Part shown: positions 11,438 to 15,652 of the stretch, in pieces
Position numbering within the stretch: position 1 is the stretch's first letter
How the letters are laid out: every line of letters starts with the position of its first letter
Assembly: GCF_002156705.1 (NCBI RefSeq)
Contig: NZ_CP019893.1
Span: 496,001 to 560,000, forward strand
Direction of reading: 5' to 3'
DNA from: Natrarchaeobaculum aegyptiacum
Lineage (GTDB): Archaea; Halobacteriota; Halobacteria; Halobacteriales; Natrialbaceae
DNA length: 64,000 bases
Made by a program: the position numbers and the translations under genes
Notes under the pieces: generated by a model
Database searches by the model: none
The model's input: only the letters and a program-made list of their open reading frames with translations
Told to the model about the DNA's origin: nothing

Positions 11438-11677
11438 ATGACGAAAGTAGATGTACGGGAACTCCAGACCAACGAGACCGACGATCGCGGCCGAATCTAT
11501 CTCGGGACGGAGTATGCGAACAAACGTGTAACCGTCGCAGTCGTCGAAGTGGAAGCAGACCGTCCAGACGAGGACGAACTGGCTGCCGCATATCGCGAAG
11601 CGTCTGAGAGTGCAGAAGATCTCACAGAGGAGTGGGACGACGCGTCGGACGAGGCATGGAGCGGGCTGAATAAATGA
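11438..11677 (+). CDS. antitoxin of a MazEF-type pair
   Basis: This 79-residue acidic protein has an N-terminal AbrB-like beta-hairpin core (DDRGRIYLGTEYANKRVTV) and a helical acidic C-terminus rich in Glu/Asp/Ala, the usual layout of an antitoxin with a DNA-binding head and a toxin-wrapping tail. Its last codons overlap the toxin ATG by four bases. A TATA-like stretch (CACTTATTC, near 11410) lies 28 bases upstream, so the message is probably leaderless. It would repress its own promoter together with the toxin. The call rests mainly on the partner gene. Confidence 0.8.
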   Translation: MTKVDVRELQTNETDDRGRIYLGTEYANKRVTVAVVEVEADRPDEDELAAAYREASESAEDLTEEWDDASDEAWSGLNK

Positions 11678-12027
11678 GCGAGGACGTGGCAATTCGCCGC
11701 GGCGATGTCGTTATCGTTCGGTTCGATCCTGCAGAAGGGCACGAAATGAAGAAAACCCGGCCTGCCGTAGTCGTTCAGAACGACGTGGGGAACAGCAATG
11801 CAAGTACAACTATCGTTGCACCCGTGACTGGAACGTACCGCGGATATCCGTTCGAGGTCCTCGTCGAAGCCGCGGAGTCGCCGTTCGAGAAGGATTCCTC
11901 GATCCGTCTCGACCAGATTCGTGTCGTTTCTATCGAACAGCGGATTCACTCCGTAGTTGGGTGTCTCGACCCGGAGACAGTGAAGCGTATCGACGACGCG
12001 CTGAAATTGAGTCTCGGCCTCGAGTAA
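11674..12027 (+). CDS. PemK/MazF-family toxin
   Basis: The 117-residue protein has the MazF-type start RRGDVVIVRFDPAEGHE, the KKTRPAVVVQND segment and the TTIVAPVTGT and DSSIRLDQIRVV strands, ending with a helix (PETVKRIDDALKLSLG). Family members are usually mRNA endoribonucleases. It appears intact and is coupled to the antitoxin (ATGA overlap). Its stop codon is immediately followed by the 33-bp copy of the chorismate mutase 3' end (12028-12060), marking a recombination junction. Confidence 0.9.
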   Translation: MSEDVAIRRGDVVIVRFDPAEGHEMKKTRPAVVVQNDVGNSNASTTIVAPVTGTYRGYPFEVLVEAAESPFEKDSSIRLDQIRVVSIEQRIHSVVGCLDPETVKRIDDALKLSLGLE

Positions 12028-12060
12028 GCTAGCGATTCTCCCGCTGGTACTCCTTGTTCA
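12028..12060. repeat. 33-bp direct repeat, left copy (chorismate mutase 3' end)
   Basis: This segment is identical over 33 bases to 15328-15360, which contains the last ten codons and stop of the chorismate mutase gene. The match ends abruptly on both sides. The copies are in the same orientation, 3,300 bases apart, and bracket the IS605 element plus the RelE-type toxin-antitoxin pair. Such a gene-end duplication is what site-specific integration at the 3' end of a gene leaves behind. Confidence 0.9.
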
Positions 12061-12135
12061 GATCTTAGACTGATGTTACAGATTTCGCCTACTTTACCGG
12101 TTTCTGGTATATCTACAGGAAAGACAGGCCGAGTG

Positions 12136-12156
12136 CCTCGGGGCTTGACCCCGAGG
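12136..12156. repeat. left-end hairpin of the IS605 element
   Basis: A perfect 8-bp stem (CCTCGGGG/CCCCGAGG) with a 5-base loop (CTTGA). The same sequence in the same orientation recurs at 14635-14655. Located 19 bases beyond the tnpA stop, it is the probable TnpA recognition structure at the left end. Confidence 0.8.
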
Positions 12157-12175
12157 GTGAAGGCCGTAAGCTCCG

Positions 12176-12574
12176 CTAAACGTGTTCCGTTCGCTCAATA
12201 TACTGTTCAATCGTCTCGCTCGACACTGTGCCTGCCGTCCCGACATAGTATGACTGCTCCCAGAATCCACCACCCCACAAATACTGTTCCAGAAACGGTT
12301 CGTGTTGCCCCCACATCTCTCGCGCTGTGATGCTCTTAATCGTCCGTACAATCCTGCTCGGCGCGTGTTTCGGATGCGCGGACAGGAACACGTGTACGTG
12401 GTCAGGAGAGATATGCAACGATTGTAGGTCATAACCGTACTCATCGCATACTTTCTGGAAACACTCGTCCAACGAATCCTCGATTGACTCCAGTATCACG
12501 TGGCGGTACTTCGGACACCACACGAAGTGATAGTTGACGTTATACACCGTGTGATTTGACCGTTTCTCCCCCAT
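12176..12574 (-). CDS. tnpA: IS200/IS605 Y1 transposase TnpA
   Basis: This 132-residue HUH single-strand transposase has the metal-binding HVH at residues 59-61 (SPDHVHVFLSA) and the catalytic tyrosine in EQYIERTEHV (Y125), positions matching those known for the ISHp608 enzyme. It cuts and joins single-stranded DNA at hairpin-bearing ends during excision and insertion. The ATG at 12574 gives MGEKRSNHTVYNVNYHFVW, the usual family start; a longer frame to 12625 adds unrelated sequence. It is divergent from the DUF2080-tnpB operon, leaving 53 bases for two promoters. Confidence 0.95.
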   Translation of the reverse strand: MGEKRSNHTVYNVNYHFVWCPKYRHVILESIEDSLDECFQKVCDEYGYDLQSLHISPDHVHVFLSAHPKHAPSRIVRTIKSITAREMWGQHEPFLEQYLWGGGFWEQSYYVGTAGTVSSETIEQYIERTEHV

Positions 12575-12627
12575 ATTGGACACACCACACCGATATACAT
12601 AAGTATATCCAAGGGATATACACAAGT

Positions 12628-12783
12628 ATGGCGAATCGCTTTGAAATCGACGGCGAAGAAGTTCTCGACGGAGAGGTCAAACCGTTCGGGAACAGCGCCC
12701 ACGTCACCGTCCCAAAACGCTGGCGTGGCGCGGACGTGAAAGTCGTTCGTACCTCAGAACCCACCGAACAAGACGAAGAATGA
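12628..12783 (+). CDS. DUF2080-family transposon-encoded protein
   Basis: A 51-residue protein (MANRFEIDGEEVLDGEVKPF then GNSAHVTVPKRWRGADVKVV) with an AbrB-like swapped-hairpin pattern. DUF2080 proteins are commonly encoded beside tnpB in archaeal IS605 elements and may regulate or bind element DNA; their function is not established. It overlaps the following 189-residue gene by four bases (ATGA). The internal ATG at 12628 fits a start just after the AT-rich divergent promoter. Confidence 0.85.
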   Translation: MANRFEIDGEEVLDGEVKPFGNSAHVTVPKRWRGADVKVVRTSEPTEQDEE

Positions 12784-13349
12784 ATGGTGAAACTAACGGT
12801 TCTGCACGAACCGAATCACTCGTTCGAACACTCTGTGACGCAGAAGAGCGTGATGTGGTGTTCCGATTCAATGACCAGATGTCCGCCCCTACGTCGAAAT
12901 ACAATGGGTCATCCTATCGCAGCGAGACGCTACCCAAGGCAACGCTAAACGCGACCATCTGGAATGCCAGTGTCGAAGACGCAGGCGAGACGCTCATGTG
13001 CTTCGCCAAAATCGATATGGAGGAACTTGACCGTGTAGGAATTGACCCTTCGGTTGTATACACTGAACCAGTTGACAGGACGCCTGAATACTGTGTAGTT
13101 GATGTTAACGCATCACGACAATGGTGGTTAGATGAGTTCTCTGAACTCACCAGAGAGGAAGCAGAACAGGCAATCGAAGACGGTCGTGAGGAAGACGTGC
13201 TTCCGCCGTGGGATGGACTCCCCACCGTCACGGTAAACGTCGAACGAACAGAAAAGTGCCTTGAGAGGTCGTATAACTCAGGATTTCATATCCAGTATGA
13301 CCCTCCGACGCACGAAATTGGGGAAATAATCGACGTTCGAATCAAATGA
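12780..13349 (+). CDS. unrecognised 189-residue protein carried inside the IS605 element
   Basis: I do not recognise this protein. It is acidic, has no membrane segment, and includes a beta-rich middle (KATLNATIWNASVEDAGETL), a WWLDEFSELTREEAEQAIED helix and a PPWDGLPTVTVNVERTEKC segment. Its ATG overlaps the DUF2080 stop and its TGA overlaps the tnpB ATG, both as ATGA, so the three genes form a tightly coupled operon. Codon use is noticeably more AT-rich than in flanking chromosomal genes, in keeping with horizontal transfer. Candidate roles are an accessory factor for TnpB or for transposition, or passenger cargo; the sequence does not decide. Confidence 0.7.
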   Translation: MNGETNGSARTESLVRTLCDAEERDVVFRFNDQMSAPTSKYNGSSYRSETLPKATLNATIWNASVEDAGETLMCFAKIDMEELDRVGIDPSVVYTEPVDRTPEYCVVDVNASRQWWLDEFSELTREEAEQAIEDGREEDVLPPWDGLPTVTVNVERTEKCLERSYNSGFHIQYDPPTHEIGEIIDVRIK

Positions 13350-14620
13350 CTGGGGCGTCTCTCGTGAAAACGCTGGACTTCCAACTCGACATCCAGAGTG
13401 ACAACGAGAGTCTGCTCAAAGACGCCACCCTCGAAGCCCGCTGGGTGTACAACGAAACCATCCGCCTCGCCAAAGAAGGCGTGGACTGGGACGATATTTC
13501 TCCTCGCCTCGAAGACGAGGCCGACCTCATCAAGAACACGACTCAACGCATCGTCGCCAAAGCGTTGGAAGCGATGGAGAATTACTACGACTACGACGAC
13601 TACAACATTCCCAGCCACACCAAAGATGGCGCGTACCCACTTCGAGCCAACTACGAAGAAGGCTACAACCTGTCGCTCACTGATGATGGTGAAGTGGCGT
13701 TTCGCATCAGCGCGAAACCCTACAACCACGTCAAAGGCATCCTCAAAGGTAGTGACGCCCACCTTGATGTGCTCAAGAACGCACTGACGAGCGACGAGTG
13801 GAAAGTCACGACCAGTGAAGCCCTGTGGCGCGAGGGAGAACCTGAACTTCACGTCAATATTCGCAACACCGAACGTATTGTTCGAGACAGGCAGGACTCT
13901 CAGACGGTTATCGGTGTCGATGTGAACGAGGACAACGTGGCCCTCACTGCACTCTCCGAGGATGGCGTCGAGGATACGTTGGTTATCGACTTCCCCGAAA
14001 TCAAGTTCGAGCGCCACCGCTATTTCACGATGCGGAAGCGCGTTCAGAATGTGGGGAAGGACAGCATACACGACACGCTGGAAGGTCGTGAGGAACGGTT
14101 CGTCCGCGACCGACTCCACAAAGTGAGCCGTCATATCGTGGAGTGGAGCCGTCAGTTCGAGAAGCCGTGCATCGTCTTTGAAGACCTCAAAGAGATGCGC
14201 GACAGTATCGACTACGGCACGCGGATGAACCGACGCTTGCACCACCTCCCGTTCCGCGCCCTCCAGTTCTATACGTCGTACAAGGCGTCGTTCGAGGGAA
14301 TCCCCTCAGATTCGATTGATCCGTACAAGACGAGCCAGCGGTGCCCGTTGTGTGGGCACGCTGAACGGGCGAATCGGCGGAAGAAGCGATTCAAATGTAA
14401 GGACTGTGGTCATCAAGACCACAGCGACCGTGGTGCAAGCGTCAACATCGCCGTGAAAGGCATCGAGAAGTATATGGATTGGAATGTGCCTGCTCTCAAC
14501 AGCCTTCCCGTTGTTCGGAAGGTGCGACGGCAGGCATCGGGGCTTGTGGACAGCCCGACCGTGACCCACCCGACCGTTCGAGGCTATCAGGCCGATGGTC
14601 AAGTGGGAGTATCTGATTAA
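13346..14620 (+). CDS. tnpB: TnpB RNA-guided nuclease of the IS605 element
   Basis: This 424-residue protein has the split RuvC active site: D192 in VIGVDVNEDN, E279 in CIVFEDLKEMRD and D361 in HSDRGASVNIA. A zinc ribbon lies between the last two (C333, C336, C351, C354). TnpB proteins cut DNA guided by an omega RNA made from the element's right end and help retain the element after excision. All catalytic residues are present, so it is likely active. It is translationally coupled to the preceding 189-residue gene. Confidence 0.95.
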   Translation: MTGASLVKTLDFQLDIQSDNESLLKDATLEARWVYNETIRLAKEGVDWDDISPRLEDEADLIKNTTQRIVAKALEAMENYYDYDDYNIPSHTKDGAYPLRANYEEGYNLSLTDDGEVAFRISAKPYNHVKGILKGSDAHLDVLKNALTSDEWKVTTSEALWREGEPELHVNIRNTERIVRDRQDSQTVIGVDVNEDNVALTALSEDGVEDTLVIDFPEIKFERHRYFTMRKRVQNVGKDSIHDTLEGREERFVRDRLHKVSRHIVEWSRQFEKPCIVFEDLKEMRDSIDYGTRMNRRLHHLPFRALQFYTSYKASFEGIPSDSIDPYKTSQRCPLCGHAERANRRKKRFKCKDCGHQDHSDRGASVNIAVKGIEKYMDWNVPALNSLPVVRKVRRQASGLVDSPTVTHPTVRGYQADGQVGVSD

Positions 14621-14662
14621 ACCACGGGAAGAAGCCTCGGGGCTTGACCCCGAGGCGGTTCA
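14520..14662 (+). ncRNA. candidate omega RNA (reRNA) at the 3' end of tnpB
   Basis: In characterised IS605 elements the guide RNA scaffold overlaps the tnpB 3' end and the right-end hairpin, and the guide begins just outside the element. Here the perfect right-end stem-loop lies at 14635-14655, and the following bases would be the start of the guide. Limits are approximate and no promoter or processing site can be seen. Confidence 0.35.
14635..14655. repeat. right-end hairpin of the IS605 element
   Basis: Identical in sequence and orientation to the left hairpin (8-bp stem, CTTGA loop), 14 bases beyond the tnpB stop and 8 bases before the stop codon of the convergent RelE-type toxin gene. 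Confidence 0.8.
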
Positions 14663-14663
14663 C

Positions 14664-14948
14664 TCAGTCGTCGTCAGCGGTATACGCGCCTCCACGACGT
14701 TTGATTCGAGCAACAACCATTCGGTACTCGTCTTGATCGAACGTGACCGCGAGGCGGAACTCACCGATACGCACTTTACGGCGTGGACTGTTCTGGAGCG
14801 GTTCGCCATAGTCCGGTGGGTCTCGCCACGGAGAATCGACGATTTCGTCGAGTTTGTCGATGATGCGCTGTTGCTCAGTTGGGTTGAGCGCAGCGAGGTC
14901 GTCCTGTGCTTTCGATGCAAGTTCCCACGCCCACCCGTCGTCACTCAT
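14664..14948 (-). CDS. RelE/ParE-family toxin
   Basis: The 94-residue basic protein has the RelE fold pattern: an N-terminal helical hairpin (SKAQDDLAALNPTEQQRIID), the DYGEPLQNSPRRKVRIGEFR strand-turn segment and the terminal strand YRMVVARIKRRGGAYT. Members usually cleave mRNA on the ribosome or inhibit gyrase. It lies downstream of its antitoxin, overlapping it by 8 bases, the usual RHH-RelE order. Its 3' end abuts the right end of the IS605 element, but the protein does not seem truncated. Confidence 0.85.
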   Translation of the reverse strand: MSDDGWAWELASKAQDDLAALNPTEQQRIIDKLDEIVDSPWRDPPDYGEPLQNSPRRKVRIGEFRLAVTFDQDEYRMVVARIKRRGGAYTADDD

Positions 14949-15225
14949 TCGTGTCGCTAGTGCCGAATCGTTCGCGTGCTTCTTCGGCGCTCATCGTCCG
15001 TTCTTCACGAACGTCCTCTTCAGCTTTGAGGAGCGCAACGAGTTCATCACGGTCGAACGCAGGGTGTTCAACGGCATCACGTAAGGTATACCGAATAAAT
15101 TCGCTCCGACTGTTGAATCCTCGTCCTTGCCACGTGTCTTCGATCTCGTTGAGAAACGACCGTGTGACTTTGAAGTTTACCGTGACGATCTCGTCGTCGC
15201 CGTCGTTTGTGGCCGCTTCGGACAT
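14941..15225 (-). CDS. ribbon-helix-helix antitoxin
   Basis: This 94-residue acidic protein contains a ribbon-helix-helix core (VTVNFKVTRSFLNEIEDTW, then SRSEFIRYTLRDAV) and a C-terminal tail (EERTMSAEEARERFGTSDT) expected to neutralise the toxin. The RHH head would bind its own promoter as a dimer; an inverted repeat 12 bases upstream of the start (15237-15256) is a plausible operator. It is coupled to the RelE-type gene by an 8-base overlap. Confidence 0.82.
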   Translation of the reverse strand: MSEAATNDGDDEIVTVNFKVTRSFLNEIEDTWQGRGFNSRSEFIRYTLRDAVEHPAFDRDELVALLKAEEDVREERTMSAEEARERFGTSDTNE

Positions 15226-15327: not shown

Positions 15328-15360
15328 GCTAGCGATTCTCCCGCTGGTACTCCTTGTTCA
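15328..15360. repeat. 33-bp direct repeat, right copy (native chorismate mutase 3' end)
   Basis: Contains the last ten codons and TAG of the chorismate mutase gene. It is identical to 12028-12060. This copy lies within an intact gene and is taken as the original site. Confidence 0.9.
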
Positions 15361-15652
15361 ACTCGATTAGCTCCCGGAAGACCGCTTTGACGCGACTCTC
15401 GTCGACGTCGAACCGCGCGGCGTTGTCTGCTGCCCGCTCCATGACCTGCTGTTCTTGCTGCTCGTCGGTCGTCGGCAGTCCCTCGTCGGCTTTCACCTGA
15501 GCGATCGCGTCGGCGACGTACGTTCGCTGGGCGATCAACTCGACGATTTCGCGGTCGATCGACCTGATCTCCTCGCGCAGTTCCTCGAGGCTCATCTCCC
15601 CGGGTTCCCGGTCGTCCGTCGATCCGCCGTCTGTCGATTGTTCCTGTGTCAT
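15329..15652 (-). CDS. chorismate mutase (AroQ class)
   Basis: The 107-residue all-helical enzyme converts chorismate to prephenate for Phe/Tyr synthesis. It shows the AroQ pattern: MSLEELREEIRSIDREIVEL, the R in IAQRTYVADAIAQVKADEG and a C-terminal helix VKAVFRELIELNKEYQRENR. About 20 acidic N-terminal residues precede the fold. It follows shikimate kinase by 13 bases on the same strand, so both act in the shikimate pathway and are probably co-transcribed. Its last ten codons are duplicated at 12028-12060. Confidence 0.95.
   Translation of the reverse strand: MTQEQSTDGGSTDDREPGEMSLEELREEIRSIDREIVELIAQRTYVADAIAQVKADEGLPTTDEQQEQQVMERAADNAARFDVDESRVKAVFRELIELNKEYQRENR

What the first reader, a model, noticed from the sequence alone, without database searches (positions are those of the whole stretch)
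12628..14620. Three-gene coupled operon DUF2080 - unknown 189 aa - TnpB inside an IS605 element
Both junctions are ATGA overlaps, so the unknown protein is made with DUF2080 and TnpB. Typical archaeal elements carry DUF2080 directly before tnpB. A protein inserted between them, with AT-richer codon use, could be a TnpB accessory, an inhibitor of the nuclease, a transposition factor or cargo. TnpB keeps all catalytic residues (D192, E279, D361), so the system looks functional.
Basis: partly seen in the sequence, partly recalled or inferred. Interest (0 to 1): 0.72.

Follow-up and report, generated by a model that had tools for sequence, protein, structure and literature searches.

The report
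Portable cargo gene in haloarchaeal IS605
The unknown 189-residue protein is a real, selected gene carried as interchangeable cargo in a slot of a small salt-lover jumping element (IS605); it is not a fixed partner of the RNA-guided nuclease TnpB, because near-identical elements lack it and many genomes keep it without that nuclease.

Summary
Observation confirmed: divergent tnpA, then DUF2080 (12628-12783), a 189-aa ORF 'X' (12780-13349) and tnpB (13346-14620), both junctions ATGA. An empty site in a relative sets the element at 12117-14663, target TCTAC. X is a real gene (17 intact homologues in as many haloarchaea, dN/dS about 0.1-0.2) with no sequence or fold match.

IS copies 94-98% identical in DNA lack X exactly at the ATGA junction. 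X-bearing tnpBs are scattered (at least 4 label changes; one clade rejected, p 1.8e-6). X is 95-98% identical between backbones only 83-90% identical, so it moves as a cassette. Ten of 17 intact X genes have no full tnpB beside them; two have GC3 of 76-86% and look long resident.

Beyond the finding: the gene before tnpB is itself exchangeable (AbrB-like DUF2080, VapB-like or ParG-like), and only the DUF2080 type has a GTATATCC-AAA-GGATATAC palindrome before it. The DUF2080|tnpB slot also holds an unrelated 74-aa zinc-ribbon-like gene in elements of several TnpB lineages.

Best reading: an IS200/IS605 passenger slot between regulator and tnpB. X's biochemical role is unknown; a regulator-coupled effector is my guess.

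The parts
12112..12116 (+). target pentamer TCTAC kept at the left edge of the element
   Evidence: empty site in L033 (G032) reads TCTAC|TCAGTCGTCG; TCTAC conserved at the left end of all copies compared
12117..14663 (.). whole IS200/IS605 element (2,547 bp) carrying X
   Evidence: empty site; most full-length copies align from about 12112 to 14663
12136..12156 (+). left subterminal hairpin CCTCGGGGCTTGACCCCGAGG
   Evidence: read directly; same sequence at both ends and in other copies
12176..12574 (-). tnpA, Y1/HUH transposase (start ATG 12574; the listed ORF runs to 12625)
   Evidence: Y1_Tnp 7e-38, NF033573 164 bits; HVH motif
12603..12621 (.). palindrome GTATATCC-AAG-GGATATAC, candidate operator of DUF2080
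   Evidence: matching palindrome in 26 of 28 DUF2080-type copies and 0 of 10 copies with another regulator
12628..12783 (+). DUF2080, small AbrB-like protein
   Evidence: PF09853 and NF033496 above cut-off; 'AbrB-like' is my reading of the sequence
12780..13349 (+). X, 189-aa passenger protein of a family found only in haloarchaea here
   Evidence: 17 intact homologues; purifying selection; AF2 model pLDDT 85.7 without PDB or BFVD match
13346..14620 (+). tnpB, RNA-guided endonuclease family, D192/E279/D361 present
   Evidence: NF040570 130 bits; residues
14635..14655 (+). right subterminal hairpin CCTCGGGGCTTGACCCCGAGG
   Evidence: read directly
14659..14663 (+). right end TTCAC of the element
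   Evidence: junction with empty-site flank

Best explanation
X is a passenger gene in a cargo slot of a haloarchaeal IS200/IS605 element. The slot lies between the regulator gene (here DUF2080) and tnpB. X starts on the regulator's stop codon and ends on the tnpB start codon (ATGA both sides), so it is inserted without uncoupling DUF2080 and tnpB. X passes between IS backbones as a cassette, most simply by homologous recombination in the conserved flanks, and is often kept by hosts after the rest of the element has decayed. Shown: real gene, exact presence/absence, scattered distribution, cassette transfer, retention without tnpB, selection. Inferred: transcription as one operon under a promoter controlled by DUF2080; a TnpB-independent function; and, as my working guess for what it does (about 0.3 likely), that X is a non-toxic effector expressed with a small DNA-binding regulator. 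It sits behind AbrB-like DUF2080 in the IS and behind a DUF7342 winged-helix gene in G023.
For: Exact absence: L031, L032 and L033 run from DUF2080 straight into tnpB through one ATGA, while X copies have ATGA-X-ATGA. W against L032: tnpA 97.9%, DUF2080 96.7%, no X, tnpB 94.0%; W against L002: tnpA 82.6%, X 95.4%, tnpB 89.4%; L011 against L018: tnpA 89.7%, X 97.7%, tnpB 90.0%. tnpB tree: 6 changes of the X label, at least 4 forced by supported branches, one clade rejected with p 1.8e-6. Ten intact X genes without a full tnpB: L003, L006, L007, L009, L010, L012, L015, L016, L026, L028. Summed changes on terminal branches of nine of these: 53 nonsynonymous to 109 synonymous. GC3 of L006 is 76% and of L028 86%, against about 47-54% for the IS-borne copies. 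A second, unrelated gene (74 aa, zinc-ribbon-like) occupies the same slot in L078/L248, L238/L255, L249 and L250. In G023 X follows a DUF7342 gene with ATGA overlap.
Against: All seven X genes beside a full-length tnpB are in DUF2080-type elements (7/7 against 37/65, Fisher p 0.038; rows not independent), so a working link to DUF2080 or the operon is possible. Five of the ten other copies keep IS remnants, so many may be recent leftovers. Four of nine genomes with a solo X carry a full TnpB at least 84% identical elsewhere, against about 60 of 295 genomes at 75% identity or more (my count). That leaves room for action in trans. Recombination is inferred from identity patterns, not observed. 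The N:S count is a crude consensus method.
Confidence: 0.75

Rival explanations
1. X is a dedicated TnpB accessory (cofactor, omega-RNA handling or nuclease inhibitor), translated with TnpB.
For: ATGA coupling to tnpB; present in seven elements with a full-length tnpB match, several with a full-length tnpA match too.
Against: Absent from IS copies 94-98% identical; 10 of 17 intact X genes have no full tnpB beside them; X-bearing tnpBs are not a clade; two X genes look adapted to host composition.
Confidence: 0.1
2. DUF2080 and X are a toxin-antitoxin pair stabilising the element, DUF2080 being the antitoxin.
For: DUF2080 was validated as an antitoxin (SpnP2/DUF2080) of a nuclease toxin in PMC10440598; the alternative regulators in the slot resemble VapB and ParG; DUF2080-X pairs persist without full tnpA and tnpB in L003, L009, L012 and L015.
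Against: X persists intact where DUF2080 is frameshifted (L026), strongly diverged (L010, L016) or absent (L006, L028), which a toxin should not tolerate; most DUF2080 genes in IS605 have no X; no PADLOC, Pfam or fold match to a toxin.
Confidence: 0.1
3. X is an antagonist of this TnpB family acting in trans, kept by hosts or by rival elements as protection from IS605 cleavage.
For: Solo X co-occurs with a full TnpB at 84-96% identity elsewhere in G008, G032, G217 and Natronorubrum bangense.
Against: Not in G023, G248, G267 or G399; small, post hoc sample; X shares IS ancestry, which alone gives co-occurrence.
Confidence: 0.05

Closest known systems
IS200/IS605 elements with divergent tnpA and tnpB (haloarchaeal IS605/IS1341 group; PMC3119063)
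   Same: Y1 TnpA, TnpB, subterminal palindromes at both ends, short target, no target duplication
   Different: Carries an extra coupled gene between regulator and tnpB; the regulator itself is one of three unrelated kinds across the family
'Transporter IS' carrying passenger genes (ISfinder usage; from my own knowledge)
   Same: A gene not needed for transposition lies inside the IS ends and moves with it
   Different: Passenger sits in one fixed, translationally coupled slot and is exchanged between backbones; I know of no such slot described for IS605, and papers found with 'cargo gene' or 'passenger gene' plus IS605 did not show one by title or abstract
Type II toxin-antitoxin modules with AbrB-like antitoxin, including DUF2080 (PMC10440598)
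   Same: Small DNA-binding first gene, overlapping second gene, exchangeable regulators
   Different: X is kept without any regulator and has no toxin homology

Membership tests
IS200/IS605 element | Y1/HUH TnpA | tested here: met
   PF01797 7e-38; NF033573 164 bits; HVH motif
IS200/IS605 element | subterminal hairpins, insertion 3' of a short target, no target duplication | tested here: met
   identical 21-nt palindromes at both ends; empty site TCTAC|TCAG in L033
IS200/IS605 element | excision and insertion activity | not testable with these tools
   needs a transposition assay
RNA-guided TnpB | RuvC triad D/E/D and zinc ribbon | tested here: met
   D192, E279, D361; PF07282 60.1 bits, cut-off 26.3
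RNA-guided TnpB | omega RNA and guided cleavage | not tested
   no RNA data; 3' end of tnpB not modelled
DUF2080 family | profile match above curated cut-off | tested here: met
   PF09853 28.3 against 21.5; NF033496 68.3 against 22
TnpB accessory protein | constant association with its TnpB | tested here: not met
   absent from 94-98% identical copies; 10 of 17 intact X away from a full tnpB
Type II toxin (partner of DUF2080) | always accompanied by an antitoxin gene | tested here: not met
   L006 and L028 without recognisable partner, L026 with frameshifted DUF2080
Type II toxin (partner of DUF2080) | toxin homology or fold | tested here: not met
   no hit in Pfam, NCBIfam, PADLOC, PDB sequences or folds
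Type II toxin (partner of DUF2080) | growth arrest neutralised by the partner | not testable with these tools
   needs expression assay
IS passenger gene | inside IS ends, dispensable to otherwise intact copies | tested here: met
   X within 12117-14663; X-less copies L031 and L032 have full-length tnpA, DUF2080 and tnpB matches

The most novel reading that the evidence does not exclude
Haloarchaeal IS605 elements are a shuttle for small regulator-coupled effector genes: an exchangeable DNA-binding regulator with its own operator, followed by a slot for unrelated effectors (X, zinc-ribbon-like Zn74). X would be a new effector family with an undescribed fold that hosts adopt, for defence or maintenance, once the element dies.
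Probability: 0.25. Interest if true: 0.72.

Novelty: new variant of a known kind. Interest (0 to 1): 0.52.

Why it matters
IS200/IS605 elements are the ancestors of Cas12 and are usually treated as minimal: transposase plus RNA-guided nuclease. A fixed slot in which different small genes are exchanged without breaking coupling to tnpB would show how such elements, and TnpB-derived systems, pick up extra genes. It also gives a clean natural experiment: near-identical elements with and without X, with a predicted operator and target site.

Tried and rejected
X as family member: no Pfam, NCBIfam, PHROGs, PADLOC or PDB match. First AF2 model from 8 rows was poor (pLDDT 65); with 17 rows it reached 85.7, still without a PDB or BFVD match at E <= 0.001. 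X in viral contigs or phages: none. X as a relative of the TumE-like partners of DUF7342: profile comparison probability below 1%. X inserted once into one IS lineage: rejected. Site-specific insertion at ATGA: not needed; the tnpB 5' end differs between W and its X-less relatives and resembles L002, which fits recombination. Enrichment of solo X with cognate TnpB: suggestive only. Literature: only one paper in the library names DUF2080; none found that describes the slot.

Full report
OBSERVATION. DUF2080, TnpB and the divergent Y1 transposase TnpA pass curated cut-offs. The TnpB residues D192, E279 and D361 are there. X is AT-richer than its neighbours (GC3 50.0% against 59.6% and 69.6%). 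The element can be delimited: in relative G032 (locus L033) the same flanks are joined without the element, reading ATCTAC|TCAGTCGTCG, so the window copy occupies 12117-14663, 3' of the pentamer TCTAC, with identical 21-nt subterminal palindromes at 12136-12156 and 14635-14655. TCTAC stands at the left end of all ten copies compared.

X IS A REAL GENE. Searches found 20 loci (duplicates merged by me), all in haloarchaea; 17 are intact, one is frameshifted (L017, Haloquadratum) and two are fragments (L008, L029). Pairwise dN/dS is about 0.1-0.2. No library of families, solved chains or phage genomes gives a named relative; the one plasmid hit is an unnamed hypothetical protein. An AlphaFold2 model from 17 sequences is good (pLDDT 85.7, pTM 0.82; one N-terminal helix followed by a mostly beta fold) yet has no PDB or viral match with E <= 0.001.

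X IS NOT TIED TO TnpB. First, near-identical IS copies lack it. In L031 (G008), L032 (G255) and L033 (G032), tnpA is 95-98%, DUF2080 96-98% and tnpB 94-95% identical in DNA to the window copy, yet DUF2080 runs directly into tnpB through one ATGA. The X-bearing copy L002 is more distant on both sides (tnpA 82.6%, tnpB 89.4%) but its X is 95.4% identical. L011 and L018 show the same: X 97.7% on backbones 90% identical. Second, on a tnpB tree of 36 copies the seven with X need 6 changes, at least 4 forced by well-supported branches, and one clade is rejected (p 1.8e-6). X therefore moved between backbones several times, most simply by homologous recombination through DUF2080 and the start of tnpB. 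Third, 10 of 17 intact X genes have no full tnpB beside them. Five of these keep clear IS remnants (L003, L009, L010, L012, L015). L006 and L028 have no recognisable partner and GC3 of 76% and 86%, as if adapted to the host's composition over a long time. Changes on the terminal branches of nine solo copies sum to 53 nonsynonymous and 109 synonymous, where no selection would give roughly three to one the other way. The method is crude, but the direction is clear.

THE REGULATOR BEFORE tnpB IS EXCHANGEABLE. In 89 related X-less tnpB copies, the gene before tnpB is DUF2080 in 37, a ParG-like ribbon-helix-helix protein in 16 (PF09274, 25.7 bits against 21.4 for the representative tested), a VapB-like protein in 12 (PF02697, below cut-off), and none of these in 24. 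A palindrome GTATATCC-AAA-GGATATAC or a close variant stands just before the DUF2080 start in 26 of 28 DUF2080-type copies and in none of 10 copies of the other two types. In the window it is at 12603-12621, between the divergent genes. This suggests, without proving it, that DUF2080 controls the tnpA/tnpB promoter region. The window's own genome holds a second IS of this family, 85% identical in TnpB, with the VapB-like regulator and no X.

THE SLOT HOLDS OTHER CARGO. In G217 (L078) a 74-aa gene with CxxC...CxxC lies between DUF2080 and tnpB, again starting on the DUF2080 stop. A 70% identical gene sits in the same place in G257 (L238), before a TnpB of another lineage. Of 12 genomes with clear homologues, four have DUF2080|Zn74|tnpB, in elements whose TnpBs belong to several lineages; others lie beside a divergently oriented TnpB. 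Among 110 DUF2080 loci surveyed, nearly all others run straight into a tnpB. Cargo is thus rare but not unique to X.

MECHANISM. Shown: precise modular presence, cassette transfer, retention and selection without tnpB. Inferred: one transcript with coupled translation, DUF2080 as repressor, X as an effector independent of TnpB. A hint that X works with a small regulator is locus L061 (G023), where X overlaps (ATGA) a DUF7342 winged-helix gene, in the place where most other DUF7342 genes checked have a downstream partner of about 150 aa, two of four tested being weakly TumE-like. X shows no similarity to those partners. A classic toxin is unlikely because X persists without an intact partner (L006, L026, L028). 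DUF2080 itself has been validated elsewhere as an antitoxin (PMC10440598), so the question deserves a growth test.

VERDICT. The thing is a new variant of a known kind, an IS200/IS605 element with a coupled passenger slot. The function of X remains unknown.

Noticed in passing
window 12028-12060 and 15328-15360: Exact 33-bp direct repeat; the right copy is the 3' end of the chorismate mutase gene (15329-15652, -). Between the copies lie the IS and a ParE/ribbon-helix-helix pair, suggesting an integrated toxin-antitoxin cassette later hit by the IS.
   Followed up: partly
window 14664-15225 (-) and 11438-12027 (+): Two toxin-antitoxin-like pairs flank the IS: ParE-like with a 94-aa partner at the right edge (its stop codon abuts the IS end) and PemK/MazF-like with a 79-aa partner on the left.
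   Followed up: partly
L078/L248, L238/L255, L249, L250: 74-aa zinc-ribbon-like gene (Zn74) in the DUF2080|tnpB slot of elements from several TnpB lineages; other copies lie beside divergent tnpB genes, in two cases followed through ATGA by a 47-aa small protein (L251, L253).
   Followed up: partly
L034, L041, L043, L045, L048, L050, L051, L042 and others: The small DNA-binding gene between tnpA and tnpB is swapped between AbrB-like, VapB-like and ParG-like kinds, together with the promoter palindrome.
   Followed up: yes
L061 6211-7746 (-) and 3938-5083 (-): In G023, X lies with a DUF7342 gene, an ArdC-like anti-restriction gene and a Fic gene, probably an integrated mobile element.
   Followed up: no
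L263-L272: DUF7342 winged-helix genes are mostly followed at 0-7 nt by a gene of about 150 aa; two of four partners tested are weakly TumE-like (E 0.009-0.02), a possible unrecognised haloarchaeal toxin-antitoxin group.
   Followed up: partly
L208: About 230 bp without a clear long ORF between DUF2080 and its tnpB in G385.
   Followed up: no
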